Assembly: GCA_017592665.1 (NCBI GenBank)
Contig: JAGFNW010000025.1
Span: 1-64,000, forward strand
From: Streptosporangiaceae bacterium NEAU-GS5
Lineage (GTDB): Bacteria; Actinomycetota; Actinomycetes; Streptosporangiales; Streptosporangiaceae
DNA: 64,000 bases
Direction: 5' to 3'
The notes below the pieces were generated by a model. It was given only the letters and a program-made list of their open reading frames with translations, searched no databases and was not told where the DNA came from. This document shows positions 10,726-26,512 of the stretch, in pieces. Within the stretch, counting starts at the first letter, position 1. The number at the start of each line of letters is the position of its first letter. The position numbers and the translations under genes are program-made.

Positions 10726-10794
10726 GAGGTGGTTCAGGGTCCGGTCAGGGGCATCCCCGATCCGCATGAACGTGCCCGAAGGCACGCTAAAGGT

Positions 10795-11241: not shown

Positions 11242-11247
11242 CAACCC

Positions 11248-12012: not shown

Positions 12013-12057
12013 ACGCCCGATTCTCCGTGAGACAGGTCACGCGTATGTTCGGCTACC

Positions 12058-12102
12058 GGTGGGTAACATTGAATTGATAGGGTTACCCACCAGTACGTAA
12101 CC
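12058..12102. promoter_or_regulatory. overlapping inverted repeats upstream of the acyl-CoA dehydrogenase gene
   Basis: A perfect 10-bp inverted repeat, GGTGGGTAAC (12058-12067) and GTTACCCACC (12082-12091), has a 14-bp spacer. A second repeat, GGTTAC (12081-12086) with GTAACC (12097-12102), overlaps its right arm. The GTTAC/GTAAC arms resemble TetR- or GntR-type operators of fatty-acid catabolic genes. The sites lie 28-72 bp before the ATG of the acyl-CoA dehydrogenase. Confidence 0.6.
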
Positions 12103-12129
12103 GGGTCTTGACCGTGGGGAGCGCGTGCC

Positions 12130-13935: not shown

Positions 13936-13942
13936 AGCAGTT

Positions 13943-14653
13943 CTAGATCCGGGACAGGGCCCGGTCGCTGACGAAGCAGTAGATGCCGAACTCGCGCGCA
14001 CGCCGCTGGGCGTACGCGGTGAGTTCGGCGCTGTCGGCGTAGTCCAGGGCGTAGACGTCGACGTCCAATTTGAGAAGTTCCTCGGCGATGGAGGCATGCG
14101 TCTCCAGCACGTCGTCGGGCCACGGGGCGTAGCTCCCGAAATCGGTCCACCGGGCCGAGAACGACTCGAACAGCACGCCGTCGACCAGCTCCGCGAGCCG
14201 TGGCAGCAGGCCGAAACCCCGGTTGGCCAGCAGATACTCCGGGCCGGCCTCCTGGCGGACGGCCGCGATGAGGGTCAGCAGGTGCGGCAGGTCCTCCGGA
14301 TAGGTCGACTCGATGTTGAGCGTGTCGAGGAACAGCCCCGAGAATCCGGCCGCCATGGCCGCTCTGGCCTGCCCCACCACGTGGGCCGTCCAGCGGGGAT
14401 CCCCCACGTGCACATAGGCGCCGCCCCAGTCGGGGTTGCGCGCCTGGCGATGCCAGGGAGCGGCGGGGCCGGGATCCTCGGTGAGGGACAGGTAGCCGAG
14501 CGCGCCCACCCCGCGCTCCCGCAGCCAGGCCAGCTCCCCGGCCGAGTAGAAGTCGGCCTGCAGCACGACCGTCTTGTAGCGGGTCAGGCGTTCGAGCTTG
14601 TCGGCCCCGTAGTAGAAGCCGATCGGCTCGGTCGTGACACGTGTCGCATCCAC
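13943..14653 (-). CDS. GH114-like glycoside hydrolase without signal peptide (endo-alpha-1,4-polygalactosaminidase family)
   Basis: A ~236-residue TIM-barrel protein resembling the TM1410/GH114 family, whose characterised members cut alpha-1,4-linked galactosamine polymers. Visible features are an early strand with IGFYYGADKLERLTRY, the family Asp in SGLFLDTLNIE and a C-terminal Glu in VDGVLFESF. No secretion signal is present, unlike the second family member in this operon, so it may act in the cytoplasm or need partner-dependent export. The open frame reaches 14761, but that part lies within the preceding epimerase gene. The GTG at 14653 overlaps the epimerase stop (TAGTG) and is preferred; GTG codons at 14662 and 14665 are alternatives. 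It is the last gene of the nine-gene operon. Confidence 0.75.
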   Translation of the reverse strand: MDATRVTTEPIGFYYGADKLERLTRYKTVVLQADFYSAGELAWLRERGVGALGYLSLTEDPGPAAPWHRQARNPDWGGAYVHVGDPRWTAHVVGQARAAMAAGFSGLFLDTLNIESTYPEDLPHLLTLIAAVRQEAGPEYLLANRGFGLLPRLAELVDGVLFESFSARWTDFGSYAPWPDDVLETHASIAEELLKLDVDVYALDYADSAELTAYAQRRAREFGIYCFVSDRALSRI

Positions 14654-15585
14654 TATGACCACCACTCGCGATACCAGTCGAAGGTGCGCCGGACCCCCTC
14701 CTCCAACGGCACGCGCGGCTCGAAGCCGGTGAGCTCGCGTAGGAGGGTGATGTCCGGGCAACGGCGGGCGACCGCGCCCGGCGGCGCCGGGCGCGGGTCG
14801 AGCTGCGGGCTCATCCCGGCCATGCGCAGGATGAGCTTGGCCAGATCCCCGATGTTGGTCTCGACGCCGGCGCCGATGTGGACGATCCGGCCGGCCGCGC
14901 CGGGCGCGCCCATCAGCCGGATCATGGCGTCGACCGCGTCGTCCACGTAGCAGAAGGCCCGGGTCTGGTCGGAGCCGTACAGGAGGAAGGGGTCCTCGCC
15001 GCGGACGGCCCGCAGCGACAGCTCGGGGATCACGTGGTCGGCGCCCATCCGCGGGCCGTACACGTTGTGGAATCTGCCGATCACCGCGTGCGGCGCGGTG
15101 TGGCGGACGGCCGCCTCGCCCCAGAGCTTGCTCACGGCGTACGCGAAGCGGTGCGCCCCGATGTCCTCGATTACCAGCGGCACGTTCTCCGGCGTCGGGA
15201 CCGGCACGAGGCCCGCGCCCACCCCGCCCGCGTACGCCTCGCTCGTCGACGCGAAGAACAGCGGCTCGCCGTCGAGCCAGTCGAGCAGATGCATCAACGC
15301 CAACGTGTTGACCCGCATCACCCGCGCCGGGTCGGCCTCGACGTTCCGCACGCCCACGACGGCGGCCAGCATGTACACCTGGTCCCAGCGGTGCGGGAGT
15401 GCCGCGTACGCGGCCGGATCGGTCAGATCGGCCGAGAGCACCTCGATCGGAAGGGTGGCGACGGCCTCGTCCCTGCGGCCCCGGGAGAAGTCGTCGACGA
15501 CGGTGACGGCGTGGCCCTCCTCCGCCAGCCGCCGCGTCAGATGCAGCCCGATGAACCCGGCGCCGCCAAGAACCAGCACCCTCAT
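14653..15585 (-). CDS. NAD-dependent sugar-nucleotide epimerase/dehydratase
   Basis: A 310-residue extended short-chain dehydrogenase. The NAD motif GGAGFIG is at residues 7-13. The catalytic Tyr149 and Lys153 are in YAVSK, with a Ser in FASTSEAY. It presumably makes or modifies a UDP-sugar for the polysaccharide, for example a UDP-glucose/galactose or UDP-hexuronic acid 4-epimerase, or a UDP-glucuronate decarboxylase. The exact reaction is not readable from the sequence. Its ATG overlaps the stop of the UDP-sugar dehydrogenase gene (ATGA), and that pairing favours a uronic-acid-type substrate. Confidence 0.85.
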   Translation of the reverse strand: MRVLVLGGAGFIGLHLTRRLAEEGHAVTVVDDFSRGRRDEAVATLPIEVLSADLTDPAAYAALPHRWDQVYMLAAVVGVRNVEADPARVMRVNTLALMHLLDWLDGEPLFFASTSEAYAGGVGAGLVPVPTPENVPLVIEDIGAHRFAYAVSKLWGEAAVRHTAPHAVIGRFHNVYGPRMGADHVIPELSLRAVRGEDPFLLYGSDQTRAFCYVDDAVDAMIRLMGAPGAAGRIVHIGAGVETNIGDLAKLILRMAGMSPQLDPRPAPPGAVARRCPDITLLRELTGFEPRVPLEEGVRRTFDWYREWWS

Positions 15586-16889
15586 CGGACCGGCACCCCC
15601 GACGGCTGGTAGCCGATGCCCGCGTAGCGGACGCCGCGCCCGGTGATCGCGGCCTCGTCGAGGATCCGCCACGAGTCGAAGACGATCCGAAGCTCGGCGC
15701 CTTCCAGCAGGTGGCCCACCTCGATGGCCCGGTAGTCCGGGTGATCGTTGATCACCAGCAGCGCGTCGCTCTCGGAGAACGCCTTGTCCAGGCTCACCGG
15801 GTGCCCGCCGTACTCCCTGATCACCTGCGGCGAGACCAGCGGGTCGTGGCCCCGCACGCTCAGCCCGGCGGCGCGGAAGATCGGCATCATGGGCGCGATC
15901 GGCGTGCCGCGCATGTCGTCCGTGGGCGGCCAGCCCTTGTACGCCCAGCCGAGCACCGACAGCCGCACCTTCTCCGCGGTGCCGAACTCGGTCCTGATCA
16001 GCTCGACCATGCGCTCGGCCACGTGCACCGGCAGGTGCTCGTTGAGCCGCCGCGCCGCCCCGATCAGATAGGGCGTGTGCCCGGACGTGCTGGCCAGCAT
16101 GATGTACGGATCCTTCGACAGGCATCCGCCGCCCACGTACCCCGGCTTGATCAGATCGGGCCGCGGATATCCGGCGTTGGCCGCCTGGATGACCTCGAGC
16201 GGGTCGAGCCCGTGCCGTTCGGCGATGAGCGCCATTTCGTTGCCGTAGGAGTAGATGACGTCGGTGTGGCAGTTGTTGGCGAGCTTGACCATCTCGGCCG
16301 CCTCGAGGCTCGACACGGGCGACACCCGCTCGGCCAGGCCGCCGAACACCTCGGTGGCCAGGTGGAGGCTCTCCTCGTCGAGCCCGCCGACCACCTGCGG
16401 CAGGTCGACGAGCTCGCGCAGGGCCTGCCCCTGGATAGTCCGCTCGGGGGCCATCGCCAGCCGGGCCCTGCCCCAGCGCGCGAGCAGCGCGGGCAGCACC
16501 ACGCTCCGGGTGGCGCCGATGGGGACCGTGCTCCGCACCACCACCAGCGTCTCGGGGTGACAGCGCTCGGCCACGTGCTCGGCGGCGGCGGCCAGGCTGC
16601 GGAGGTCGGGCCGGAGCGTGGTCTCGTCGATGGGCGTCGACACGCAGATGATCGCGGCGTCGAGCCAGATGGACGGCAGTTCGGTGTCGATGAAGACGGT
16701 GGTCCCCACGCATTCCTCGAAGACCTCCGCCACGCCCGGCTCGTAAACGTGCAGCCGGCCGCTCGACAGCGACTCGACGACGGCGGGATTGGCGTCGGCG
16801 CCATGGACGACGACGCCCTTTCTCGCCAGGGCGGCGGTGAGCGTCAGGCCTACGTAACCCATGCCGACCACGCCGATTTTCATGGACAT
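15582..16889 (-). CDS. nucleotide-sugar 6-dehydrogenase (UDP-glucose/UDP-ManNAc dehydrogenase family)
   Basis: A 435-residue enzyme that oxidises C6 of a UDP-hexose to a uronic acid in two NAD-dependent steps. It has the N-terminal dinucleotide motif GVVGMGYVG, the conserved Lys in MVKLANN near residue 202, the catalytic Cys256 in GGGCLSKDP and the C-terminal sugar domain. The central block VRSTVPIGATR and the PERTIQGQA segment look closer to the WecC/WbpA (N-acetyl-hexosamine) branch than to UDP-glucose dehydrogenase. If correct, the product would be an N-acetylhexosaminuronate donor. The frame opens at a TTG (16904); the ATG at 16889 follows GAGAGGTG and is chosen. The gene begins 15 bp after the preceding hydrolase gene. 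Confidence 0.85.
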   Translation of the reverse strand: MSMKIGVVGMGYVGLTLTAALARKGVVVHGADANPAVVESLSSGRLHVYEPGVAEVFEECVGTTVFIDTELPSIWLDAAIICVSTPIDETTLRPDLRSLAAAAEHVAERCHPETLVVVRSTVPIGATRSVVLPALLARWGRARLAMAPERTIQGQALRELVDLPQVVGGLDEESLHLATEVFGGLAERVSPVSSLEAAEMVKLANNCHTDVIYSYGNEMALIAERHGLDPLEVIQAANAGYPRPDLIKPGYVGGGCLSKDPYIMLASTSGHTPYLIGAARRLNEHLPVHVAERMVELIRTEFGTAEKVRLSVLGWAYKGWPPTDDMRGTPIAPMMPIFRAAGLSVRGHDPLVSPQVIREYGGHPVSLDKAFSESDALLVINDHPDYRAIEVGHLLEGAELRIVFDSWRILDEAAITGRGVRYAGIGYQPSGVPVR

Positions 16890-16904
16890 CGCGACACCTC
16901 TCAA

Positions 16905-17837
16905 TCAGTCGCAGGGAGAGCTGATCCGGTCGAGCGCGGGCACCGTCACGTTGCCCGCGAAACCGTTGGTTCGATAGAGCGCGCACGCGGCGCGCAGGTT
17001 GTCGGAGCGCTCGGCGTAGTCGGTCGCGAGGACGGGCTTGCCCTGCCGGCGCAGGGCCACGGCCTCGGCCAGATTTTCGGCGCACCAGTCTTCGTCGCAG
17101 GGCCGATCGGTGGCGCGGAAGAACAGCTCCTCCATTCCGATGCCGTCGATGGCCTGCGTGTAACCGGAGAAATGGCGCAGTTCTGGCGAGTTCTGCGGCA
17201 CGATCAGGAAGCCGGGCCTGCGGCTCCTGGCGTAGGCGCTGATCCGGATGATCAGGTCGACCATCCGCCGGCCCAGGCTGTGCCGGCTCTCCCCCCGTGC
17301 CATGGCGAGGTCGATCTCCTCGTACGCGAGCGGCGTGTCGAGGTAGACCCCGTCGAAACCGGCACGCAGCGCCTGATCAGCGCGCGGACGGACGACCGAA
17401 TCCCACCACCGCGGATCCCAGTAGCGGACGAAGTGCTCATCCGGCCACTCGGCCCAGCGGTTGAGAACGAGGTCGGGATGGCGGCGGCGCACGAGCCCCC
17501 ACTCGTCGCGGAACTCCTCTATCGAGCCGATCTCGAAGTAGGCGAGGACCAGCTTCCCGGCCCCCCGCAGCCGGGCGATCTCGGCGGCCGTGAACGCGCC
17601 GCGCGCGGTGCCGTCGCGGGACAGGTCGATGATGGCGAGCGGCTGCGGCGCGCCGGCGATCGCGTCGAGCCGGTCGTCGGTGTATCGCTGCAACTGGTAG
17701 ACGAAGGAACGGACGGCGCTCAGGGAGGGCTGCGGCGCCTGCGGGAGCTGTGCTCCCGCGCGACCGTCCGCGCACGCCACCGCGGCGAGCGCAAGCGCGC
17801 ACGCGGTCAGCGACGACCGACGCCCCTCCCATTTCAC
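16905..17837 (-). CDS. secreted GH114-family hydrolase, putative endo-alpha-1,4-polygalactosaminidase
   Basis: A 310-residue exported protein. Residues 1-30 are a signal sequence with basic residues, a hydrophobic core and AAVACADG, a weak lipobox, so it could be a surface lipoprotein or a cleaved Sec protein. The mature part matches the GH114/MJ1477 family. Blocks include FVYQLQRYTDDRL, LAIIDLSRDG, LVLAYFEIGSIEEFRDEW, YWDPRWWDSVV and DGVYLDTPLAYEE, with conserved acidic residues. Characterised homologues cleave galactosaminogalactan or Pel, so it could trim or release the polymer made by this operon. The GTG at 17837 overlaps the epimerase stop (GTGA); an open frame further upstream overlaps the epimerase and is rejected. 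Confidence 0.85.
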   Translation of the reverse strand: MKWEGRRSSLTACALALAAVACADGRAGAQLPQAPQPSLSAVRSFVYQLQRYTDDRLDAIAGAPQPLAIIDLSRDGTARGAFTAAEIARLRGAGKLVLAYFEIGSIEEFRDEWGLVRRRHPDLVLNRWAEWPDEHFVRYWDPRWWDSVVRPRADQALRAGFDGVYLDTPLAYEEIDLAMARGESRHSLGRRMVDLIIRISAYARSRRPGFLIVPQNSPELRHFSGYTQAIDGIGMEELFFRATDRPCDEDWCAENLAEAVALRRQGKPVLATDYAERSDNLRAACALYRTNGFAGNVTVPALDRISSPCD

Positions 17838-18712
17838 TCGGCCACCACACCCTTCAGCGAGTCGGCGAGCGTGTGACGGGGCCGCCAGCCGAGGGCGTCG
17901 CGCGCCCGGGAGATGTCGGCCACGCTCCAGGGCACCTCCGCGGAACGCGTGGAAGCGCGGGCGTTCTCGTGGATCTCGCCAGAGAATCCGAGCTCCGCGG
18001 CCAGCCGCCGGACGGCGTCCCGTACGGTGACGGCCTGCCCGCTCCCGACGTTGAACACGCGCGCCGTCAGCACTGGCGCGAACGCCGCCGCGACCACGGC
18101 CGAGGCCACGTCGCGCACGTCGACGAAGTCGCGCACCGCCCCCAGCGGGCCGAACCGCACGGGACCGAGCCCGTCCGCCGCCCGGAGCACCTCGGCGGCC
18201 CGGCCGAGCACGGTGGCGTCCGTGATGCCGGGCCCGACGGGGTTGAAGACCCGGAGCGTCGCGCCGTCGATCCGGCCGTCGTCGGCGGCCACCTCGAGCA
18301 GCCGCGTCCCGGCCAGATGGCTCACGCCGTACGCGCTGACAGGCCGCGCGCACTGATCCTCGGTGACGGCCTGCCCGGCCGGAGCCGGGCCGTATTCGGC
18401 CGCGCTGCCCAGTCTGATCAGCCGGGCGCCCGGTGCCACACCCGCCAGCGCCTCGATCAGCGTCACGGTCACGCCCGCGTTGCCCCTGAGCAGCTCGTCG
18501 ATCCCGCCGCTGAGCCGGCCGACGCAGTTGAGCACCACGTCGGGCCGGAGGCCGGCGAGCAGCCGCGCCGCGTCGGTGGCGCTCGCGGCGAGCAGGTCGA
18601 GCCGGGCACGGCCCGGAGTGGCGACATCGGACACCCGAGGGTCCGCCTTCAGCTGCGCCAGGACCTGCCGCCCGAGGAACCCCGAGGCGCCGAACAGCAC
18701 CACCCGGGTCAT
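17834..18712 (-). CDS. NAD-dependent epimerase/dehydratase family protein with altered YxxxK motif
   Basis: A 292-residue extended SDR protein with the nucleotide motif GASGFLG at residues 8-14 and the Ser region SAAEYG. The usual catalytic YxxxK reads YGVSH, so Lys is replaced by His132 after Tyr128. The fold is otherwise intact: RVFNPVGPG, VRDFVDVRDVA and FNVGSGQAVTV are all typical of sugar-nucleotide SDRs. Activity may therefore be lowered or changed, for example to a reductase (RmlD-like) or a regulatory role. It lies between the nucleotidyltransferase and the GH114 gene with 4-bp overlaps on both sides, so it clearly belongs to the operon. Confidence 0.8.
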   Translation of the reverse strand: MTRVVLFGASGFLGRQVLAQLKADPRVSDVATPGRARLDLLAASATDAARLLAGLRPDVVLNCVGRLSGGIDELLRGNAGVTVTLIEALAGVAPGARLIRLGSAAEYGPAPAGQAVTEDQCARPVSAYGVSHLAGTRLLEVAADDGRIDGATLRVFNPVGPGITDATVLGRAAEVLRAADGLGPVRFGPLGAVRDFVDVRDVASAVVAAAFAPVLTARVFNVGSGQAVTVRDAVRRLAAELGFSGEIHENARASTRSAEVPWSVADISRARDALGWRPRHTLADSLKGVVAE

Positions 18713-19482
18713 CGCGTGCCCCTTCGGGAGTGCTCGCGCGAGGCGACCAGCTGCGGGCCCACGGCGAGGCCGCCGGACGGGATGAGCTGGGCGCGTATCT
18801 CGTCGAAGTGCAGATTGGCCTCGTCGTAGTCGTCGGGGCGGCCGATGTCGAGCCAGTAGCCGTCGTGTTCGAAGATGGCCGGATACTCCTCCTGGGCCAG
18901 CAGGTCGAGCACGAGCTCGTCGAAGCCGAACGACATTCCTTCGGGATATTTCGCGATGGTCTCGCGTGACAATCCGTAGACGCCCATGCTCACCAGGTAA
19001 CTCAGCAGCGGTTTCTCCCGGAACGCGATGATCTGGCCGCGCCGCGCCTCCAGCACCCCGAAGTCGATCTTGACGATCCGCGGCGCCGTGGCGACCGTCA
19101 GCGCGGCGCCGGACATGCTGTGCTGCTGGAGCACGTCGGCGAAGTTCAGGGTCGTCAGCACGTCACCGTTCATCACCAGGAAGTGCTCGGGCAGCCGGTC
19201 GCGGATGGAGAACAGCGGGCCGATCGTCGACAGGGGCGCCGACTCCTCGTTGTAGTCGACGTCGATGGCCCAGCGCGACCCGTCGCCGACGAAGGCGCGG
19301 ATCAGCGGGCTCAGATGTCCCACGGCGAGCGTCGCGCGGGTGAATCCGTACGCGCGTAACTGCTGCAGGATGATGTCGAGGATGGCGTACTCCTCGCCGA
19401 TGGGGACCAAGGGTTTGGGCAGCGCGGATGTGAAGGGGCGCAGCCGCACCCCTCGCCCGCCGGCAAGAATGACCACGTGCAT
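18709..19482 (-). CDS. sugar-1-phosphate nucleotidyltransferase
   Basis: A 257-residue NTP-transferase (GT-A-like fold) that activates a sugar 1-phosphate to a nucleotide sugar. The signature LAGGRGVRLRPFTSALPKPLVPIG-type loop is at residues 6-29, with metal-binding Asp in VMNGDVLTT and the sugar-binding Lys in FREKPL. It lacks the C-terminal acetyltransferase or isomerase domains of GlmU and ManC, resembling single-domain RfbA/DDAH-type enzymes. The sugar is not determined. GGAGG precedes the ATG at 19482. It begins 31 bp after the exporter-like gene and overlaps the epimerase by 4 bp. Confidence 0.88.
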   Translation of the reverse strand: MHVVILAGGRGVRLRPFTSALPKPLVPIGEEYAILDIILQQLRAYGFTRATLAVGHLSPLIRAFVGDGSRWAIDVDYNEESAPLSTIGPLFSIRDRLPEHFLVMNGDVLTTLNFADVLQQHSMSGAALTVATAPRIVKIDFGVLEARRGQIIAFREKPLLSYLVSMGVYGLSRETIAKYPEGMSFGFDELVLDLLAQEEYPAIFEHDGYWLDIGRPDDYDEANLHFDEIRAQLIPSGGLAVGPQLVASREHSRRGTR

Positions 19483-19513
19483 GGGGGTTGCCTCCTGTGT
19501 CGCTTACCGGCTG

Positions 19514-20929
19514 TCAGCCGTACTGCTGGACGTGCCTGAGACTTGCCATCGCGAAGCCGAGCAGGATGAGCAGGAAGGAGACGCCGGCGGCGAGGAACAC
19601 CGTGACGTCGAGGATCGGGGTCCGCGGGCCCGGCGGCAGCAGCCACAGACCTGGGTGGATCGCGAGCGCGACACACTGAGCCACGCAGAGCAGCGCGGTC
19701 TTGCCTTGATTGGCGAGGACGAAGGCGAGGAAGTAACCGCCTCCGATCACGACATGGGCCGAGGCCATGACCACGACCTCGGGGGCGACCGGTCCCGCCG
19801 TGTGGAGCAGGGCGAGCAGCCCGGCCGCCGGCAGGGCGAGCGACAGCAGGCAGATGGCCAGCCCGCGGAGCAGCATCCGCCTGGTCCTCCCGGTGAACTG
19901 GCGGGGGTAGCGGATCCGCCGCAGCAGGTCCCTGGCCTGGTCCTCGAACCGGTGCGTGCGATATTCGACCACGCCCATCCCGAGCACGAGCGGCACGCCC
20001 GCGATCGCGATGTCCGTCCGGCCGAGCACGTACGTGGCCTCCGCCTGCAGCAGGAAGAACGCCGACAGCACGCTGTAGCCGAGCGAGGGCAGCTGCCGCG
20101 GCAGCTCCGATCGGGTCAGCAGCGGCCGGCGGGCGGGGTCGGCCGGGACCCGGTAGGTCAGCGTCACGGCGCACGCGGTGATCACCGCCACCGAGCCGAT
20201 GCCGAGCTCGACCGCGACCAGCGCCACCGGCATCTCGCCGATCAGCAGATAGGCCACGCCCGCCACGACGGCCGGCGCCATGAGCGCGCCGAGCCAGCCC
20301 TCGCCCCGATAGAACAGCAGCACGGCGGCCGACATCTGGAACGCCATCTGGGTGCCGCAGAGCACGACCAGCCCCGGCCCGCCGCCCTGCCAGTAGGACA
20401 GGGCCCCGATGCTCACGAGCGCGCCGGCCAGGCCGATGAGCATCGTGCCGCGCAGCGTCCGGCCGGCCGCCTGCGGCAGCCCGCGGCCCAGCAGTCCGTA
20501 CGCGACCCGGGCGCCGGCGCTGCCCCAGATCCAGCCGACCGCCGTGGTGACCACGAGGCCGGGCATCAGGTAGTTCACGCCGACGATGGCCGAGGCGGCC
20601 GGCAGCAGAGCGGCCGGCAGCGCGTACAGCAATCCGTGCGCCACCTGGGCGAAGGCCCTGGCTTGCGGCGACTCGGCGGCGGGAGCCGGAGGTGGCGCCG
20701 GGCGGCCGAGCCGGGAGAAGGTCTCGTGCGCCAGGTCGAAGACGTCGGCGAAGCCGTAGCGGTCGCGGGCGATCCGGTCGGTGATCCCGTCGGATTCGAG
20801 CGCCGCCGCCACCTGAAGCGGCTCGACCGCCCATTCCAGCCGGGGCAGCATCCGCTGGACCAGCTCGTCCACCGACTCCTTCAGCGACTCTCTATGAGGC
20901 CGGTCGCCCGCGGCGACGGCAGCGGTCAT
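19514..20929 (-). CDS. 12-TM membrane protein, PelG-like polysaccharide exporter candidate
   Basis: A 471-residue protein with a ~95-residue cytoplasmic N-terminus (helical, containing LEWAVEPLQVAAALESDG), a proline-rich linker and about twelve hydrophobic helices from residue ~100 to the end. In Pel systems the gene next to pelF encodes PelG, a 12-TM transporter of the MATE/Wzx-like (MOP) group. Position, size and topology match that role, but sequence identity to PelG is not obvious by eye, and the N-terminal domain is an extra. The ATG at 20929 overlaps the pelF stop (ATGA), so both are made together. Transport of the nascent polymer is inference. Confidence 0.7.
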   Translation of the reverse strand: MTAAVAAGDRPHRESLKESVDELVQRMLPRLEWAVEPLQVAAALESDGITDRIARDRYGFADVFDLAHETFSRLGRPAPPPAPAAESPQARAFAQVAHGLLYALPAALLPAASAIVGVNYLMPGLVVTTAVGWIWGSAGARVAYGLLGRGLPQAAGRTLRGTMLIGLAGALVSIGALSYWQGGGPGLVVLCGTQMAFQMSAAVLLFYRGEGWLGALMAPAVVAGVAYLLIGEMPVALVAVELGIGSVAVITACAVTLTYRVPADPARRPLLTRSELPRQLPSLGYSVLSAFFLLQAEATYVLGRTDIAIAGVPLVLGMGVVEYRTHRFEDQARDLLRRIRYPRQFTGRTRRMLLRGLAICLLSLALPAAGLLALLHTAGPVAPEVVVMASAHVVIGGGYFLAFVLANQGKTALLCVAQCVALAIHPGLWLLPPGPRTPILDVTVFLAAGVSFLLILLGFAMASLRHVQQYG

Positions 20930-22335
20930 CCCCCGGCCTCCGTCAGTTCCTCGTACACGTGGCGGTAGTCGTCGAGGGAGCGGCCGAGCGTGAAGCGGTC
21001 CAGAACCCGGTCGCGGGCGGCCGCGCCGAGCTTGGCGCGTAATTCCCGATCCGACAGCAGGGTCAGGCACGCGTCGGCGACCGCCTCCGGGTTGCGCGGC
21101 GGCACGATCAGCCCGGCCGACCCCACCGCCTCGGCCAGGCCGCCGACGTTGGTGCAGACCACGGGCCGTCCGCAGGCCATGGCCTCCACCACCGTGTAGG
21201 GGAAGCCCTCGGAGATGCTGGTGAGCGCCACCAGATGACCGACGTGGTAGGCGTCGGCCGGGTTGGCGATCCGGCCTTCCAGGACGGCGTTCTCGGTGAG
21301 GTCCAGCTCGTCGATCAGGTCGGCGCAGCTCGCGGCGTAGACGTCGCCCTCGGCGTATCCGCCGAACAGGCGCAGCCGCGCGTCCGGAAGCACCTCCCTG
21401 ACCAGGGCGAACGCCCTGATCAGGGTGTGCAGGTCCTTCAGCGGGTCGATCCGGCCCATGAAGACCACGGTCGGCCGGTCCGGCTCGTCCGTCGCCACCG
21501 GGAAGTGCATGGGATCCACGCCGTTGTACATGGTCCTGATCCGCCCCGGGTCGGCGCCGTTGCGCACCTGCCAGCGCCGGTTGTACGACGAGTGCGGCGC
21601 GATCCGGTCGGCCACCTGGTAGGCGGCGCCGACGAGCCGGCGGTAGAAGCTGAGCAGCAGCACCCTGATGCCGTGCGACACCGGCTCCGTCAGGTATTGC
21701 AGATATCTCTCCCGCAGGTAGACGCCGTGCTCGGACAGGACGATCGGGGTGCCGTGCCGCCACTTGGCCGCCATGGCCACCAGGGCGCTGATGCCGTTCA
21801 TCGCCAGGTGCACCACGTCGGTCCGGACGGGCGGCTCGGTCAGCGGCTGCAGCATCCGGCCCATCAGCCGGGCCGCCACCAGGGCGTCGGCCAGGCTGAT
21901 CCGGTCGTCGCGGCTCTCCTGCCAGGCGTCCATCAGCTGGGTGAGCGCGTCGTTGGACAGCAGCGCGCCGATCAGGTCGCCACCGTCGTTGGCGTAGCAG
22001 AACAGCCGGTGCAGCACGGCCGCGAACCGCTCGCTGTCCTCGCCCATCGCCGCCGGAGTGAGCACGATGCCGAGGAACTCGGCGTAGATGTTCTTGAAGG
22101 CCTCCCCGGCGTACGGCCGGCCGCGGCGCGGGCTCGCCGGGCCCCAGACCGGTATCGCCAGCACGTCGCCGAGGTTGTCGGGGATGTCCCAGACGGGCTG
22201 TTCCGTGCCGTCCACGGTGAGCGTGACCACGTCCCACGCGTAGTCCGGCATGCCGCGGATGAGCTGGTCCATCCAGACGCTCACTCCGCCCATCGCGAAG
22301 GGGTAGGTGCCCTCCGATACCAGCGTCACCTTCAC
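20926..22335 (-). CDS. pelF: PelF-type GT4 family glycosyltransferase
   Basis: A 469-residue GT-B retaining glycosyltransferase. The N-terminus VTLVSEGTYPFAMGGVSVW carries the EGTYP...GGVS signature of PelF proteins, which polymerise N-acetylgalactosamine/galactosamine units. The segment VVLSEHGVYLRERYL-like (TPIVLSEHGVYLRE) is also PelF-like. The C-terminal donor domain has VVFMGRIDPLKD and the EX7E motif in SEGFPYTVVEAMACGRPVV. It is soluble and should work at the inner face of the membrane with the adjacent 12-TM protein. It overlaps both neighbours by 4 bp. The family call is firm; the sugar specificity is inferred from the linked deacetylase and GH114 genes. Confidence 0.9.
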   Translation of the reverse strand: MKVTLVSEGTYPFAMGGVSVWMDQLIRGMPDYAWDVVTLTVDGTEQPVWDIPDNLGDVLAIPVWGPASPRRGRPYAGEAFKNIYAEFLGIVLTPAAMGEDSERFAAVLHRLFCYANDGGDLIGALLSNDALTQLMDAWQESRDDRISLADALVAARLMGRMLQPLTEPPVRTDVVHLAMNGISALVAMAAKWRHGTPIVLSEHGVYLRERYLQYLTEPVSHGIRVLLLSFYRRLVGAAYQVADRIAPHSSYNRRWQVRNGADPGRIRTMYNGVDPMHFPVATDEPDRPTVVFMGRIDPLKDLHTLIRAFALVREVLPDARLRLFGGYAEGDVYAASCADLIDELDLTENAVLEGRIANPADAYHVGHLVALTSISEGFPYTVVEAMACGRPVVCTNVGGLAEAVGSAGLIVPPRNPEAVADACLTLLSDRELRAKLGAAARDRVLDRFTLGRSLDDYRHVYEELTEAGG

Positions 22336-24476
22336 GGCAGCACGCTCGCCGGAACGGTGACCGGGGCGCCGGCGGCCAAGGCGACGTTGGAGATCGAATC
22401 ACCGCCGTAGGCGACGAATCCGGTGGCCCGGGCGCCACTGACGAAGACCGATCCGGCGGCCGGCGAGCTGACGGTGATGGTGTGCGCGACCGGGTCGTAG
22501 ACGGCGTCCACGCCCGCGCCGAGCTCGGCGAAGTGGGCGTTGCGCTGGACGACGTAGGCGGCGAGGTCGGGCCAGGCCGGGGTCAGCATCGGCGTGTTGT
22601 AGTAGAGGGAGTACTTGTCGAGCACCTTGTTCAGCCAGTCGAAGACCAGGCTCTTGTTGGCGCCGTAGTTGCGCAGATTGCCCTGATGGAAGGTGTGGAC
22701 GTAGGCCGACCCCGTCATCACGTGCTGGAGCGCGACGTCCGTCTCGTAGTCGAGGATCTGCGCGTACGTGAGGTCCTGCGGCCAGAAGGGGAACCTGCCG
22801 TTGGGCCCGTAGTAGGAGTTGTAGAAGAGCGTCTCCTCGTCGGGCGTCGTCACGTGGTAGGCGATGTTGGTCGGCCAGTCCGGGATGATCATCAAGACGG
22901 GCCGGAGCGGGTGATAGATGCCCCCGTTGAAGACGGCCGGTTGGTGGCTGCCGAACGACATGTTCCCGTGCAGGTAGCGGACGCCCGCGGCGTCGGCGGC
23001 CTGCAGCAGACTTGTGTTGGACGCGCCGAGGCCGAAGTCGGTCGGCGGATCGATGTCGTTGGCCGGATCGGGGTTGTAGACGCCGAGGCCCGAGTATTCG
23101 CCGGTCTTCAGCACGTTCGCCGGGGTGCCGAGCCCCAGCTGGGTGGCGACCGTCAGGTTGTCGGCGATCTCGGAGTAGCTCGTCGCGTAGTCGGTGAAGT
23201 TCATCTTCGGGTGGCTGAAGGTGTGGTTGATCCACCGGAAGGAGGTCGAGCGGCAGCGTGAGTAGCTGGTCAGGCCGTCCGGCACGGTGGCCGTGCAGGA
23301 GTTCGGGGCGGCCGTCTCGGCGCCGTCGCCGTTGAACGGGATGTTGAGCTTGAAGTCCGAGGTCAGCGCGCGCGCCCGGAAGCTGTTCTGCTGGGTGTAG
23401 ACGCTGACGGCGTCGTTCCTGGTCAGCCGGAAGCCGGGGTCGACCTCGAGGTGGCCGTCGGCGTACAGGTGGTCGGTGGTGTTGAACCAGTCGTCCACGT
23501 CCACGTTGATGTAGCGGCGGTGCTCGCCGAGGAACAGGCCCTTGGCCGTCCAGCGGAGCACGCCGTAGACGAGCAGGTCGGCGTGGAGGAGGTACTGGTT
23601 GGAGGTGAAGGTGAGCGCGATCCGCTCGCGGCCGTCCGTCGAGGTGGTCCGTACGCCGAGGATCGAGCTCCCGGACTTGACGATCGAGGTGGCGGCGCAG
23701 CCGGCCTGGATCGAGTCGCGGTAGATGTAGGAGTAGGTGATCGGCACCGTGGCGGTCGACTTCACGTAGCCGAACACGCTCGCGCCCTGCGCCGTCAACG
23801 TGGCGCTCAGCGGGGTGGCGTCCACGCCGCCCTCACTGACCGGGCGCAGGCAGTAGTCCTCGGGAAAGGTGCCGTAGCTGGTGTAGAGCGAGGCCTGCCG
23901 CACCGCGAAGTCCCGCTCGTACGCCCAGAGCAGGTTCCACTCGTTGCCGTCGAGGCCGCTGACGAATCCGCCGCCGGCGTCCTGGTAGAGCAGGGAGTTG
24001 TTGGTGAGCAGGATGGCGTTGTAGCGGCCGACGCCGTCGGGGCGGATCAGATTGGCCGCGGTGAGCGGCTCGGTCCTGGTGCGGATGACGTCGTAGGCGG
24101 CGCCCGCCCGGTCGAGGGTCGCCGTCCAGGTCGCGATGCCGAAATCGGCGTCGTCGACCGCGACGACGAGGGCGCGCAGCGCCACCTTGTTGGTCACGAC
24201 CGCCGCGGCGGCCGTGGCGGACGCGCGCGCCGAAAGGCCGGCCTTGAGCGTCACCTTGCCGGTCTTCACCGGCAGCGGGCCGGGGACCTTCGGGATGACG
24301 GGCGCGATCGGCGCGCGGAGCGGGTTCCCCGCCGAGTGCCCGTGCCCGGGGTGCGGGCGAGGCGTGGCCGCGGATGTGATGGCGACGAGAACACCGCCGG
24401 CGAGGAGGATCGCCGCAAATAAAGTGCGAACCTTGTGCCAATGGATAAAATTATGTCGAGGCGTACGAACGTCCAT
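22332..24476 (-). CDS. Agd3-like (CE18) polysaccharide deacetylase, exported
   Basis: A 714-residue exported or membrane-anchored protein. Residues 15-38 are a signal/anchor helix followed by a Pro/His-rich linker. Residues ~95-310 form a beta-rich domain that could be the carbohydrate-binding part. From ~318 a deacetylase barrel begins with the metal site D326/D328/D329 (NVDVDDWF), H418 and H422 (HTFSH) and a late HTFHQ (594-598). This order matches the Agd3 family of Aspergillus galactosaminogalactan deacetylases. It would remove acetyl groups from GalNAc to give a cationic adhesive polymer. It is the first gene of the operon, starting 212 bp from the divergent SARP gene. CE18 membership is by motif recall and should be confirmed. 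Confidence 0.82.
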   Translation of the reverse strand: MDVRTPRHNFIHWHKVRTLFAAILLAGGVLVAITSAATPRPHPGHGHSAGNPLRAPIAPVIPKVPGPLPVKTGKVTLKAGLSARASATAAAAVVTNKVALRALVVAVDDADFGIATWTATLDRAGAAYDVIRTRTEPLTAANLIRPDGVGRYNAILLTNNSLLYQDAGGGFVSGLDGNEWNLLWAYERDFAVRQASLYTSYGTFPEDYCLRPVSEGGVDATPLSATLTAQGASVFGYVKSTATVPITYSYIYRDSIQAGCAATSIVKSGSSILGVRTTSTDGRERIALTFTSNQYLLHADLLVYGVLRWTAKGLFLGEHRRYINVDVDDWFNTTDHLYADGHLEVDPGFRLTRNDAVSVYTQQNSFRARALTSDFKLNIPFNGDGAETAAPNSCTATVPDGLTSYSRCRSTSFRWINHTFSHPKMNFTDYATSYSEIADNLTVATQLGLGTPANVLKTGEYSGLGVYNPDPANDIDPPTDFGLGASNTSLLQAADAAGVRYLHGNMSFGSHQPAVFNGGIYHPLRPVLMIIPDWPTNIAYHVTTPDEETLFYNSYYGPNGRFPFWPQDLTYAQILDYETDVALQHVMTGSAYVHTFHQGNLRNYGANKSLVFDWLNKVLDKYSLYYNTPMLTPAWPDLAAYVVQRNAHFAELGAGVDAVYDPVAHTITVSSPAAGSVFVSGARATGFVAYGGDSISNVALAAGAPVTVPASVLP

Positions 24477-24567
24477 CTAGCCCCCCACAGGCTCCGTCCG
24501 GGAACAAAGATCGCCCTGGGCTGCGATCGATGACTTCCCGAATCCAGGTGGAGTTTCAGATAGAGGC

Positions 24568-24611
24568 GTTTCGAACCGATTTCGTGAAGATTTCACTGCC
24601 ACCCGTATAGG
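24568..24611 (+). promoter_or_regulatory. SARP-type heptad direct repeats and -10 element
   Basis: Three heptads, GTTTCGA (24568-24574), ATTTCGT (24579-24585) and ATTTCAC (24590-24596), are separated by exactly 4 bp each, an 11-bp period. A -10-like GTATAG/TATAGG starts 8-9 bp after the last heptad. This is the described geometry of SARP binding sites. A fourth copy, GTTTCAG, is at 24553-24559 but is out of phase. It lies between the divergent SARP gene and the exopolysaccharide operon. Confidence 0.7.
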
Positions 24612-24688
24612 CGATCGCCCAACGGGCTCCTATGGTCGATCTGTAGTCACATGCGCAGCTCAGATGGGATCTTCAAGCGAGGGGGCTC

Positions 24689-26512
24689 ATGAAGTTCGGC
24701 ATCCTGGGTGCACTTGAGGTCACGCACGACGGGGCATTAGTCCCCATCCGATCGACAAAGCAGCGAATACTGCTTGCCATCCTCTTATGTCGGGTTGGCG
24801 AACTGGCCCCGAGCGACGTTCTCATCGACGCGCTTTGGCAGTCGGAGCACGGAGAAGTCAACACCACCCGGTTGCGGCTCCAGGTTCACCGGCTCCGCTG
24901 CACGCTCGGGGAAATGGCCCAGATCATCTATCAATCGCCCGGATATGTGCTGCATATACCTCCGCAGATGCTCGACAGCTGGCAGTTCGAGGCGCTCGTC
25001 CAGGAAGGGCGGCGGGTGATCGACTCCGGCGACCTGGCCCGCGGCACCGACCTGCTCCGCGCGGCGCTCGACCTCTGGCGCGGCGCACCGCTGGCCGGCA
25101 TGGAGAGCGTGCCGATCCTCCATCAGGAGGCCATGCGCCTGACCGAGCAGCGGATCACGGCGCTGGCCGGCCGCATCGACGCCGACCTCCGGCTGCGCCG
25201 GCACGCCGATCTGATCGGCGAGCTGCAGGTCCTGGTCGAGCAATATCCGCTGCAGGAACGCTTCCGCGGCCAGCTGATGACGGCCCTCTATCGCACCAGC
25301 CGCCAGGTCGAAGCCCTGCAGGTCTACCGCGACGGCCGGCGCACGCTCCGCAACGAGCTCGGGCTCGAGCCGTCCGCCGAGCTGCGCCACCTTGAGCACG
25401 CCATCCTCAACCGCGACCCGGCACTGTTATCCCAGGCCGACGTCCCGCCGCCGGCCGAGGAACCGACACCCTCGGCCGGCGAGACCGGGTTCGTCGGCCG
25501 GGCACGCGAGCTGATCGAGCTGTCCGTCCTGGTCCGCTCGACACCCCTGATCACTCTGGAGGGCCCGCCCGGGGCCGGCAAGTCGCGCCTCGCGCGCGAG
25601 CTCGGCAAGCAGGAGGAGCCCTATTATCCGGGCGGCGTCTGGACGGCCGACCTGTCGAACGTCTCGGAGTCGTCGCCGGCCCTGTGGGCCACGGCCACCC
25701 ACACCGGCTCCGGCGGCCCGGCCGCCTCGCCACTGCCGACGTCCTCGGCGCTGCCGGTGGCCGAGCTGCTGTGGCGGCTGCCGGCCACCCCGGCGCTGCT
25801 GATCCTCGACAACTGCGACCCCATGGCGGAGCGGCTCGGCACGCTGATCCGCGATCTCGGCAAGACCCTTCCCGAGTTGCGCGTGCTCGCCACCTGCCGC
25901 AAACGGCTGGCCGCCGTCGACCAGTTCCCGTGGCGGGTCCGCCCGCTTTCTCTGCCGTACGACGACTCCTTCCACGCGGTGCGCACGTCGGAGGCGGGCC
26001 GGCTCTTCCTGGACCGCGCCATGGAGGCCGACCACGAGTTCTCCCTGTGCCGGCACAACGCGGCCGCGGTGGCCCGGATCTGCCGCGCCGTGGACGGCAT
26101 CCCGCTCGCTCTGGAGCTCGCCGCGACCCTGACCGGTTCCGTGCCGGTCGAGCGGCTCGCCGGACAGCTCGACCGGCAGCTGGATCTGCTGGCCGACCAG
26201 GGGCGCCTCACCCCGCGGCACCGATCCCTGCGCGCCGCCATCGACTGGAGCTTCTCCCGGCTCAGCCCCGAGGAGCAGCAGGCCTACGCCCAGCTCTCGG
26301 TCTTCACGCGGCCGTTCAGGGTGGAGGACGCGGCGGTCAGCAGCGGCATCCCCCGCCCGCGGATGCGCGACCTCGTCGCCACCTTCATCGAGCACTCGCT
26401 TCTCACGGTCGAGAAGGCGCAGGACGGCCCGCGCTACCGCCTGCTCGAAATGCTGCGGCAATACGGCGCGCAGCAGCGTTTGGACCGTTCCGGATCTTTG
26501 GCCACCGGATAG
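24689..26512 (+). CDS. AfsR-like SARP transcriptional regulator with NB-ARC ATPase domain
   Basis: A 607-residue cytoplasmic regulator. Residues 1-95 are the OmpR-type winged helix (MKFGILGALEVTHDGALV) and 96-245 the BTAD (LWRGAPLAGMES, NELGLEPSAELR). Residues ~265-560 are an NB-ARC/STAND ATPase with Walker A GPPGAGKS at about 291-298 and Walker B-like LLILDNCD. No TPR array follows, so it is shorter than full AfsR. SARPs activate clusters by binding direct repeats and recruiting RNA polymerase. Its divergent position and the heptads in the shared intergenic region make it the likely activator of the Pel-like operon and of itself. The ATG at 24689 follows GAGGGGG. Confidence 0.9.
   Translation: MKFGILGALEVTHDGALVPIRSTKQRILLAILLCRVGELAPSDVLIDALWQSEHGEVNTTRLRLQVHRLRCTLGEMAQIIYQSPGYVLHIPPQMLDSWQFEALVQEGRRVIDSGDLARGTDLLRAALDLWRGAPLAGMESVPILHQEAMRLTEQRITALAGRIDADLRLRRHADLIGELQVLVEQYPLQERFRGQLMTALYRTSRQVEALQVYRDGRRTLRNELGLEPSAELRHLEHAILNRDPALLSQADVPPPAEEPTPSAGETGFVGRARELIELSVLVRSTPLITLEGPPGAGKSRLARELGKQEEPYYPGGVWTADLSNVSESSPALWATATHTGSGGPAASPLPTSSALPVAELLWRLPATPALLILDNCDPMAERLGTLIRDLGKTLPELRVLATCRKRLAAVDQFPWRVRPLSLPYDDSFHAVRTSEAGRLFLDRAMEADHEFSLCRHNAAAVARICRAVDGIPLALELAATLTGSVPVERLAGQLDRQLDLLADQGRLTPRHRSLRAAIDWSFSRLSPEEQQAYAQLSVFTRPFRVEDAAVSSGIPRPRMRDLVATFIEHSLLTVEKAQDGPRYRLLEMLRQYGAQQRLDRSGSLATG

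What the first reader, a model, noticed from the sequence alone, without database searches (positions are those of the whole stretch)
13943..26512. Pel/galactosaminogalactan-like exopolysaccharide system in an actinobacterium, under SARP control
Nine coupled genes combine a PelF-type GT4 enzyme, a 12-TM PelG-like protein, an Agd3/CE18-like deacetylase, two GH114-like hydrolases and four sugar-nucleotide enzymes. Established knowledge: PelF/PelG make and export the Pel polymer; Agd3 and GH114 (Ega3) process fungal galactosaminogalactan. No PelD-type GGDEF receptor, PelE or PelB/C is seen; instead an AfsR-type SARP is divergent. The set resembles the fungal cluster as much as bacterial pel. Product chemistry, a cationic partly deacetylated GalNAc polymer possibly with uronic acid, is inference.
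Basis: partly seen in the sequence, partly recalled or inferred. Interest (0 to 1): 0.88.

Follow-up and report, generated by a model that had tools for sequence, protein, structure and literature searches.

The report
Pel-like sticky-sugar operon of actinomycetes
This soil actinomycete carries a conserved set of genes, apparently switched on by a regulator normally linked to antibiotics, that most likely makes and trims a sticky amino-sugar coat related to Pel of bacterial biofilms and to a fungal biofilm sugar; relatives of the set were already known, but its exporter, its enzyme chemistry and its control differ.

Summary
Nine tightly coupled minus-strand genes (24476-13943) and a divergent SARP gene form an operon that recurs, in much the same order, in Nonomuraea, Spongiactinospora, Micromonosporaceae and Meiothermus. 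Several assignments change. The GT4 enzyme is a true PelF-clade member. The membrane protein has the MOP-flippase fold but no detectable PelG relationship; PelFs beside it branch apart from PelG-linked PelFs. The two 'GH114' genes are GH191-like and PelA-hydrolase (GH166)-like, the latter without a recognisable signal peptide. The deacetylase has the Agd3/CE18 fold, but its base-activating arginine (Agd3 R613) is Asp or Cys in 23 of 23 window-type rows and Arg in 57 of 57 others, while a lysine appears at the MT3-like site in the same 23. SARP control is supported by a triple GAAAY repeat (11-bp period) plus a -10-like hexamer in 15 of 15 window-type loci with the divergent SARP, found once in the 9.96-Mb genome. 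PelD was not detected. Bacterial CE18 operons with a glycosyltransferase, membrane protein and GH114-type genes were described in 2020 (PMC7229062), so this is a new variant of a known kind. The polymer's chemistry is inference.

The parts
22332..24476 (-). CE18/Agd3-like carbohydrate deacetylase (714 aa; N-terminal hydrophobic signal or anchor segment, CBM87, CE and beta-rich domains); CM1 D328/D329, CM2 H418/H422 and CM4 H597 kept; CM3 Arg replaced by D533, with K457 at the MT3-like site
20926..22335 (-). PelF-clade GT4 glycosyltransferase (469 aa), EX7E motif kept; predicted polymerase
19514..20929 (-). Polytopic membrane protein (471 aa): MOP-fold (MATE/Wzx/MurJ-like) part from about residue 86, preceded by a conserved soluble helical domain (about residues 13-75); occupies the PelG position without detectable PelG homology
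18709..19482 (-). Sugar-1-phosphate nucleotidyltransferase (GDP-mannose pyrophosphorylase/MurU-like)
17834..18712 (-). NAD-dependent SDR, nearest solved relative a GDP-6-deoxy-4-hexulose reductase
16905..17837 (-). GH191-like endo-galactosaminidase (310 aa) with an N-terminal hydrophobic segment in the window; catalytic D and E kept
15582..16904 (-). Nucleotide-sugar 6-dehydrogenase (UDP-ManNAc/UDP-Glc dehydrogenase type); start uncertain
14653..15582 (-). NAD-dependent SDR, nearest solved relatives UDP-glucuronate decarboxylase and UDP-Glc 4-epimerase
13943..14674 (-). GH166 (PelA hydrolase domain)-like protein (243 aa, start uncertain), no recognisable signal peptide; catalytic D and E kept; predicted cytoplasmic
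24568..24594 (-). Predicted SARP operator GAAAY-N6-GAAAY-N6-GAAAY (three direct repeats, 11-bp period), pointing at the operon; only copy in the genome
24552..24557 (-). -10-like hexamer exactly 10 bp after the third repeat (GAAACT here; CACACT in 10 of 15 loci)
24689..26512 (+). Divergent AfsR/SARP-family activator (607 aa: DNA-binding domain, BTAD, partial NTPase); 13 of 14 relatives carry a 268-288 aa SARP at this place

Best explanation
The locus is a synthase-dependent exopolysaccharide operon of an actinomycete branch of Pel-like systems. Shown: gene content, family relations, conservation, catalytic residues, and a conserved operator that is unique in the genome. Inferred: the SARP binds the triple GAAAY repeat and switches the operon on; PelF polymerises a nucleotide amino sugar (probably UDP-GalNAc) in the cytoplasm; the MOP-fold membrane protein, standing where PelG stands elsewhere, passes the chain across the membrane, perhaps docking PelF or a regulator through its soluble N-terminal domain in place of PelD/PelE; outside, the CE18-type enzyme removes acetyl groups, using K457 at the MT3-like site instead of the CM3 arginine to activate its base D328; the GH191-like enzyme trims or frees deacetylated polymer outside; and the GH166-like enzyme cuts acetylated chain in the cytoplasm, as quality control or length control of chains that are not exported. 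The four sugar-nucleotide genes form an accessory module that adds or supplies a further sugar.
For: Window-type core genes: CE18, PelF and membrane protein in 24 of 24 further loci; GH166 in 21 of 24, the three misses being L050 and L055 (the contig ends before that place) and L058 (no hit within the stretch held). N. dietziae (L032/L060) has, in the stretch held, only SARP, CE18, PelF, membrane protein and GH166, so these are the likely minimum. PelF clade against GT4 outgroups 100/98; window-type clade 100/99. Predicted CE18 fold matches Agd3 with Z 34.8, rmsd 2.5 A over 562 residues. Reciprocal change in CE18: position 533 D 20/C 3 against R 57 of 57; position 457 K 23 of 23 against V 50/I 7; R613 is needed in Agd3 (PMC7229062, passages). 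MOP fold: MATE Z about 21, WzxE Z about 18. GH166 catalytic D and E kept in 20 of 20 rows, D and E of GH191 in 17 of 17. No signal peptide seen on GH166 by inspection of 18 relatives; its N-terminal hydropathy (1.11; 14 relatives 0.26-1.27) is near that of PelF (0.93), not of CE18 (2.79). Operator: 15 of 15 window-type loci with the divergent SARP, with fixed 10-bp spacing to a -10-like hexamer, 0 expected in 100 shuffles of the window, once in the whole genome. SARP sites are described as heptameric direct repeats, classically in 11-bp units (PMC10972967, passages).
Against: No chemistry or expression data. PelF's donor sugar is unproven. A soluble GH166 could leave the cell by a route not recognised here. 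GH191 is absent from 7 of 24 loci (two of them because contigs end), and secretion of GH191 rests on the window's own N-terminus (hydropathy 2.11); 11 relatives score 0.37-1.82, median 1.29, with uncertain starts. No SARP hit or operator was found in the 10 other window-type loci (L035, L051-L059; L053 holds under 300 bp upstream, so it cannot speak), so SARP control is a lineage trait, not part of the machine. The operator pattern also occurs elsewhere in the order (80 matches in 61 of 345 genomes, 15 of them at these operons; reversed-pattern control 26 in 19; my count). In the CE18 variant, residues that Agd3 needs (R613, M666) are changed, so activity may be altered or lost. Several sugar-nucleotide genes look more like GDP-mannose and UDP-glucuronate chemistry than GalNAc supply.
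Confidence: 0.6

Rival explanations
1. It is an ordinary Gram-positive Pel operon (pelD-E-A-F-G type) whose PelG and deacetylase have merely drifted, and it makes canonical Pel.
For: PelF equivalog above cut-off; membrane protein with MOP fold in the PelG position; GH166-like hydrolase; deacetylase present.
Against: No PF16933 match in G000 or in the four other window-type genomes tested (G456, G204, G640, G641), while seven other CE18-bearing genomes have a PelG of 211-486 bits; profile comparison with PelG at 0.6% and 0.1%; PelG-linked PelFs form a separate clade (100/100); PelD not detected; deacetylase is CE18-type, not the CE21 or CE26 type of Pel systems.
Confidence: 0.12
2. It makes an acidic or mixed capsule-like heteropolymer (uronic acid, deoxyhexose or other sugars), and the CE18 variant de-acetylates another sugar or an O-acetyl group.
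For: NDP-sugar dehydrogenase, UXS-like SDR, GDP-mannose pyrophosphorylase-like and GDP-4-keto-6-deoxyhexose reductase-like genes inside the operon, each in 20-23 of 24 loci; rewired CE18 active site.
Against: Two loci keep the core without SDR1, NDH and SDR2 (L039, L060), one of them (L060) also without NTP; both hydrolases belong to galactosaminidase lineages.
Confidence: 0.2
3. The CE18 protein is a catalytically dead or structural member (polymer-binding), so the polymer stays acetylated.
For: Loss of the CM3 arginine and of M666 in all 23 window-type rows compared; Agd3 mutants at either residue lose activity in the adhesion assay (PMC7229062, passages).
Against: Metal ligands, base and acid (D328, D329, H418, H422, H597) are invariant in 80 of 80 rows; a lysine is gained in parallel at the MT3-like site; PaPelA (CE21) also lacks the MT3/CM3 arginine and is active (PMC12022489, passages).
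Confidence: 0.08

Closest known systems
Bacterial CE18 (Agd3-homologue) operons described with the Agd3 structure (PMC7229062)
   Same: CE18 gene next to a cytoplasmic glycosyltransferase, a multi-spanning membrane protein and GH114-type hydrolase genes, in Actinobacteria among others
   Different: The term PelF does not occur in that paper (listing counts); the passages I saw do not give the MOP fold, GH166/GH191, a SARP, or the variant active site; they do say CM3 is kept in most, not all, bacterial homologues
Gram-positive Pel system pelDEADAFG of Bacillus cereus (PMC7112168, PMC13254593)
   Same: PelF-type synthase with a polytopic membrane partner and an extracellular de-N-acetylase with an N-terminal CBM-like domain
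   Different: There PelG, PelD with c-di-GMP control, PelE and a CE26 deacetylase; here a non-PelG MOP protein, no detected PelD, a CE18-type deacetylase, SARP control and two hydrolase genes
Pseudomonas Pel system, PelA (PMC12022489)
   Same: GH166-type hydrolase and a deacetylase serve one polymer
   Different: In PelA both are domains of one periplasmic protein (GH166 plus CE21); here two separate proteins, the GH166-like one without recognisable signal peptide
Fungal galactosaminogalactan cluster (Uge3, Gtb3, Agd3, Ega3, Sph3)
   Same: Agd3-type deacetylase fold (Z 34.8) plus galactosaminidase-type hydrolases
   Different: No fungal sequence other than the solved chains was compared; Gtb3, Sph3 and Uge3 relationships were not tested

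Membership tests
PelF (GT4, DUF3492) | Score over the curated PelF equivalog and DUF3492 cut-offs | tested here: met
   183.4 against 100; 167.8 against 23.3 bits
PelF (GT4, DUF3492) | Falls in the PelF clade apart from other GT4 enzymes | tested here: met
   42 PelF rows against 17 GT4 outgroup rows, 100/98
PelG | Match to PelG family model PF16933 | tested here: not met
   No hit by the protein nor anywhere in genome G000
PelG | MOP-superfamily fold (that PelG belongs to MOP is recalled) | tested here: inconclusive
   Model pLDDT 83; MATE Z 21, WzxE Z 18, MurJ Z 16: MOP fold, but no PelG structure was compared
Gram-positive Pel operon (pelDEADAFG) | PelD-type GGDEF c-di-GMP receptor | tested here: not met
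   PF16963 0 matches in G000; rings in G646
Gram-positive Pel operon (pelDEADAFG) | PelE | not tested
   No PelE model searched; no tenth gene was seen in the operon
Gram-positive Pel operon (pelDEADAFG) | Partly deacetylated GalNAc polymer | not testable with these tools
   Needs chemistry
CE18 / Agd3 | Agd3_CE and CBM87 profiles over cut-off; three-domain Agd3 fold | tested here: met
   54.3 and 34.8 bits against 27.6; 6nwz Z 34.8 over 562 residues
CE18 / Agd3 | CM1 Asp-Asp, CM2 HxxxH, CM4 His | tested here: met
   D328, D329, H418, H422, H597
CE18 / Agd3 | CM3 base-coordinating arginine (Agd3 R613) | tested here: not met
   Asp in the window; D 20/C 3 in 23 window-type rows, R in 57 of 57 others. 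The Agd3 paper says CM3 is kept in most bacterial homologues, not all
GH191 | Closest to characterised GH191 rather than GH114; catalytic D and E | tested here: met
   9ep5 E 2e-77 against Ega3 0.08; D and E in 17 of 17
GH191 | NCBIfam TIGR01370 cut-off (MJ1477/TM1410 family) | tested here: not met
   168.8 against 181.25 bits
GH166 (PelA hydrolase) | Closest to PelA hydrolase; catalytic D and E | tested here: met
   5tcb E 1e-16 over residues 18-240; 20 of 20 keep D and E
GH166 (PelA hydrolase) | Extracytoplasmic location | tested here: inconclusive
   No signal peptide by inspection in the window and 18 relatives and low hydropathy; no predictor was available
GH114 | Pfam Glyco_hydro_114 cut-off 27 bits | tested here: inconclusive
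   96.4 bits for 16905-17837, 22.2 bits for 13943-14674; the first is nonetheless nearest to a GH191 chain, so this model does not separate the two
SARP regulators | BTAD domain and OmpR-type DNA-binding domain | tested here: met
   BTAD 156.2 bits; Trans_reg_C 24.1, just under its cut-off 26.2
SARP regulators | Direct repeats in 11-bp units near the target promoter | tested here: met
   15 of 15 window-type loci with the divergent SARP; binding itself not testable

The most novel reading that the evidence does not exclude
Actinomycetes carry a second branch of the Pel family in which the PelF synthase is paired with an unrelated MOP-type exporter bearing a soluble docking domain instead of PelG/PelD/PelE. 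In the window's sub-branch the CE18 deacetylase has moved its base-activating cation from the CM3 arginine to a lysine at the MT3-like site, the PelA-type hydrolase lives in the cytoplasm as a separate chain-length or quality-control enzyme, and in the Nonomuraea family synthesis is tied to a SARP activator, that is, to antibiotic-style regulation, rather than to c-di-GMP.
Probability: 0.4. Interest if true: 0.7.

Novelty: new variant of a known kind. Interest (0 to 1): 0.52.

Why it matters
If right, the Pel synthase PelF is not bound to PelG or to PelD-type control: it works with a different flippase-fold partner in a group of soil actinomycetes whose matrix sugars are little known. The loci give natural experiments (a five-gene minimal set in N. 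dietziae, and sets with and without the sugar module) for asking what is essential for an alpha-galactosamine-type polymer. The reciprocal R/K change in CE18 is a sharp, testable case of how carbohydrate esterases re-site the residue that activates their base. A SARP operator on an exopolysaccharide operon would link matrix production with specialised metabolism. A galactosaminidase from such a locus may also serve as a tool against Pel and fungal GAG biofilms.

Tried and rejected
Canonical Pel operon: rejected as a label because PelG and PelD tests were not met. Two GH114 enzymes: replaced by GH191-like and GH166-like after the solved-structure comparison. Full AfsR: rejected by its cut-off. 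Pfam Agd3_CE as a census tool: unsafe, because it missed Streptomyces-type CE18 genes that profiles built here found beside PelF (12 of 17 loci). A PelF census with NF038011 in 296 phylum genomes rang in 284 through generic GT4 matches and passed the cut-off in 16, so I relied on over-cut-off matches. Exact sugars of the accessory module: not resolvable. Fungal origin of the cluster: not tested, no fungal sequence set was at hand.

Limits of sampling: one search kept the best 80 of 183 confirmed stretches (79 loci), found by two short motifs of the query (one at CM2, one around CM4), so they are not a random sample; L070, L071 and L087 come from one MAG, and L039-L050 and L060 repeat loci already fetched as L021-L026 and L028-L034. 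The CE18 residue counts use window plus L039-L060 against L061-L117; L027 and L035 were read only. The 43 loci L075-L117 include one Myxococcales locus (L087) and some short contigs. GT4 outgroup rows were 17 loci that I picked from sub-cut-off matches, some on long branches. Of 30 order genomes with PelF but no Agd3_CE match, 15 were looked at, plus two loci of another genome of the class and one locus each of two other phylum genomes. GH166 hydropathy was taken after cutting each relative to 12 residues before its first conserved strand.

Literature: searches (one held library, open-licence papers only) listed no paper that by title or shown abstract is on a SARP-controlled Pel- or CE18-type operon or on this CE18 variant. 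Of PMC7229062, PMC13254593, PMC7112168, PMC12054363, PMC12022489 and PMC10972967 I saw passages found by term, not the whole texts; supplements were not available. That PelG belongs to the MOP superfamily, that PelF uses UDP-sugars, and that Nonomuraea belongs to Streptosporangiaceae is recalled.

Full report
What is there. Nine minus-strand ORFs run from 24476 down to 13943 with overlaps or almost no gaps, and a tenth ORF on the plus strand (24689-26512) faces away from them. In order of transcription they are: an Agd3/CE18-like deacetylase; a PelF-type GT4 glycosyltransferase; a polytopic membrane protein; a sugar-1-phosphate nucleotidyltransferase (NTP); an SDR (SDR1); a GH191-like hydrolase; a nucleotide-sugar dehydrogenase (NDH); a second SDR (SDR2); and a GH166-like hydrolase. 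The flanking genes (acyl-CoA dehydrogenase 12130-13935 on the plus strand; PurL-like and PurQ-like genes from 26842) are unrelated. The genome has 9.96 Mb in 127 contigs and is unnamed. Its family holds Nonomuraea and Spongiactinospora, judged from matching contig lengths.

Is it a real unit? Yes. In the 345 genomes of the order, Agd3_CE is found in 14 genomes at 15 places, the window included. All 14 other places carry CE18, PelF and the membrane protein in this order with a divergent SARP gene. A scan of named genomes gave 79 loci. Of these, 22 are of the window's type: Nonomuraea (11 loci), Spongiactinospora (2), Micromonospora (4), Dactylosporangium aurantiacum, Asanoa, Actinocrispum, a Micromonosporaceae MAG and Meiothermus granaticius, a member of another phylum whose CE18 is 54% identical. 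Adding two more genomes (L027, L035) gives 24 window-type loci besides the window. CE18, PelF and the membrane protein are in 24 of 24, NTP in 23, SDR1 in 22, GH166 in 21, NDH and SDR2 in 20, GH191 in 17, SARP in 14. Contigs end early in L050 and L055. The smallest set, in N. dietziae (L032/L060), is SARP, CE18, PelF, membrane protein and GH166. One of two N. soli loci (L039) lacks SDR1, NDH and SDR2. A more distant version, in many Streptomyces and some Dactylosporangium, typically has CE18, PelF and membrane protein, and in 31 of 43 loci (L075-L117) also NTP, SDR1 and an SDR; GH166, GH191 and NDH were found in 0 of 43 each and a SARP in 1 of 43 (L114, not beside CE18 and without the operator pattern).

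PelF. The protein passes the PelF equivalog and DUF3492 cut-offs and keeps the EX7E motif. In a tree of 59 rows, 42 PelF rows separate from 17 other GT4 rows at 100/98. PelFs that sit beside a true PelG form one clade (8 rows, 100/100). The other 34 rows, actinomycetes and a few kin, form another (96/85), with the window type as one clade (13 rows, 100/99) and Meiothermus as its first branch; for two of the 34 (L074, L135) a membrane partner was not established.

The membrane partner. The 471-aa protein has no Pfam or NCBIfam match. The predicted structure (pLDDT 83, pTM 0.75) resembles MATE (Z about 21), WzxE (about 18) and MurJ (about 16) over residues 86-470, that is, the MOP fold. Profile comparison with eight real PelG sequences gave 0.6% and 0.1% probability. 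Of 18 genomes searched with PF16933, it is absent from the five window-type ones (G000, G456, G204, G640, G641) and from four others (G645, G648, G649, G651); seven others with a CE18 gene score 211-486 bits, two of them with an operon that reads PelF, PelG, CE18; one Streptomyces genome (G650) has a partial 29-bit match, not checked further, and G001 a sub-cut-off one. Members of this membrane family lie beside PelF in 24 of 24 window-type loci and in 18 of 19 further loci examined, the exception (L196) having a PelG-profile match instead. In the 21 members aligned they share a conserved N-terminal stretch of about 60 residues with no known match. So PelF pairs with PelG in one branch and with this protein in the other. 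Whether the two are very distant relatives or independent recruits cannot be told here.

The deacetylase. The model (pLDDT 88) matches Agd3 along its whole length (Z 34.8, 2.5 A over 562 residues; next, human NDST1, Z 25.6). The metal ligands and catalytic residues are kept: D328, D329, H418, H422, H597, each invariant in 80 of 80 rows. Aligned with the Agd3 chain, the CM3 arginine R613, which Agd3 needs (PMC7229062, passages), falls on D533. Across loci the split is complete: window type D 20, C 3 of 23; all others R, 57 of 57. In the same rows position 457, two residues before the place of the proline of the MT3-like motif, is K in 23 of 23 window-type rows and V or I in 57 of 57 others (the proline itself is Gly in the window and kept in L035); position 326 (base minus 2) is D against H, Q or E; position 595 (Agd3 M666) is T against F, Y or M. 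L027 and L035 agree with the window type. [quoted passage not shown] The simplest reading is that the window type has put a lysine back at the MT3 site as the CM3 arginine was lost. This is inference from sequence. The Agd3 authors already noted that CM3 is not kept in all bacterial homologues.

The hydrolases. Gene 16905-17837 is closest to Env-GH191 (PDB 9ep5, E 2e-77), well ahead of PelA (2e-7) and Ega3 (0.08). GH191 was defined in 2025 with activity shown for one member (PMC12054363, passages). The window's protein has an N-terminal hydrophobic stretch (2.11); relatives are less clear (0.37-1.82, starts uncertain), so its secretion is likely rather than shown. Gene 13943-14674 is closest to the PelA GH166 domain (5tcb, E 1e-16; GH191 only 2e-4). 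Its catalytic D and E are kept in 20 of 20 rows, yet no signal peptide is seen in it or in 18 relatives, and N-terminal hydropathy is low (1.11, 14 relatives 0.26-1.27, PelF 0.93, CE18 2.79). A cytoplasmic PelA-type hydrolase, kept even in the smallest operon, suggests a role during synthesis rather than in matrix remodelling.

Regulation. The SARP-CE18 intergenic stretch varies in length (129-266 bp) and sequence, but 15 of 15 loci hold GAAAY-N6-GAAAY-N6-GAAAY followed after exactly 10 bp by a hexamer of the form [CG]ANA[CA]T, CACACT in 10 of 15. The pattern is the only one in the window, with 0 expected in 100 shuffles, and the only one in the 9.96-Mb genome. Among the 197 loci held it occurs once in each of 41 entries, all of them stretches over the 14 other SARP-bearing window-type loci (many fetched two or three times), and in none of the remaining 156. 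Across the order there are 80 matches in 61 of 345 genomes, 15 of them at these operons, against 26 in 19 for the reversed pattern (my count), so other genes may carry such sites. Three direct repeats in 11-bp units near the promoter is a classical SARP arrangement (PMC10972967, passages). PelD was not found in this genome, while the same model rang in another genome. The ten window-type loci without a SARP hit (L035, L051-L059) also lack the pattern, though L053 holds too little upstream DNA to count.

What it most likely makes. A partly deacetylated alpha-galactosamine-type polymer is the best guess from PelF, CE18 and two galactosaminidase-type hydrolases. The NTP, SDR1, NDH and SDR2 genes look most like GDP-mannose/GDP-deoxyhexose and UDP-uronate enzymes. 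As L039 and L060 lack three or all four of them, a second sugar or a uronic acid is possible but not part of the core. No composition data exist here.

Known or new. Operons with CE18, a glycosyltransferase, a membrane protein and GH114-type genes in bacteria, Actinobacteria among them, were reported in 2020 with a suggestion of gene transfer to fungi (PMC7229062, passages). Gram-positive Pel operons with PelD/PelE/PelG were reported the same year (PMC7112168, passages). New here, as far as the searches listed under Tried and rejected show: the assignment to the PelF clade with a change of membrane partner; the CE18 active-site variant with its lysine; the separate GH166-like protein without recognisable signal peptide; and a conserved SARP operator. 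I rate it a new variant of a known kind.

Noticed in passing
L059 (Meiothermus granaticius): A member of Deinococcota carries the actinomycete window-type operon (CE18 54% identical); its PelF is the first branch of the window-type clade, which suggests transfer between phyla.
   Followed up: partly
L058 (Actinocrispum wychmicini) 9998-14250: Two CE18 genes stand in tandem before PelF; both match the window-type profile.
   Followed up: no
window 19514-20929, residues 13-75 of the protein: A conserved soluble helical domain of unknown family precedes the MOP part in the 21 members aligned, Streptomyces included; a possible docking site for PelF or a regulator.
   Followed up: partly
L182, L184, L190, L193: PelF, the same membrane protein and SDR genes without a CE18 gene found in the stretch held; these PelFs form one clade (100/100), so another deacetylase or none may serve them.
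   Followed up: no
L196: A genome of the phylum with PelF, a PelG-profile match and a GH191-profile match in one stretch, i.e. GH191 may also go with PelG-type systems.
   Followed up: no
window CE18 (22332-24476): Predicted fold is also close to human heparan sulfate N-deacetylase NDST1 (Z 25.6), and the profile of the bacterial family finds NDST1 chains at E about 7e-4: a possible distant kinship of CE18 and NDST deacetylases.
   Followed up: no
GAAAY triple repeats elsewhere, e.g. L205-L211: The SARP-like triple repeat recurs at other places in one genus of the family (two per genome in the seven g216 genomes), possibly targets of other SARPs.
   Followed up: no
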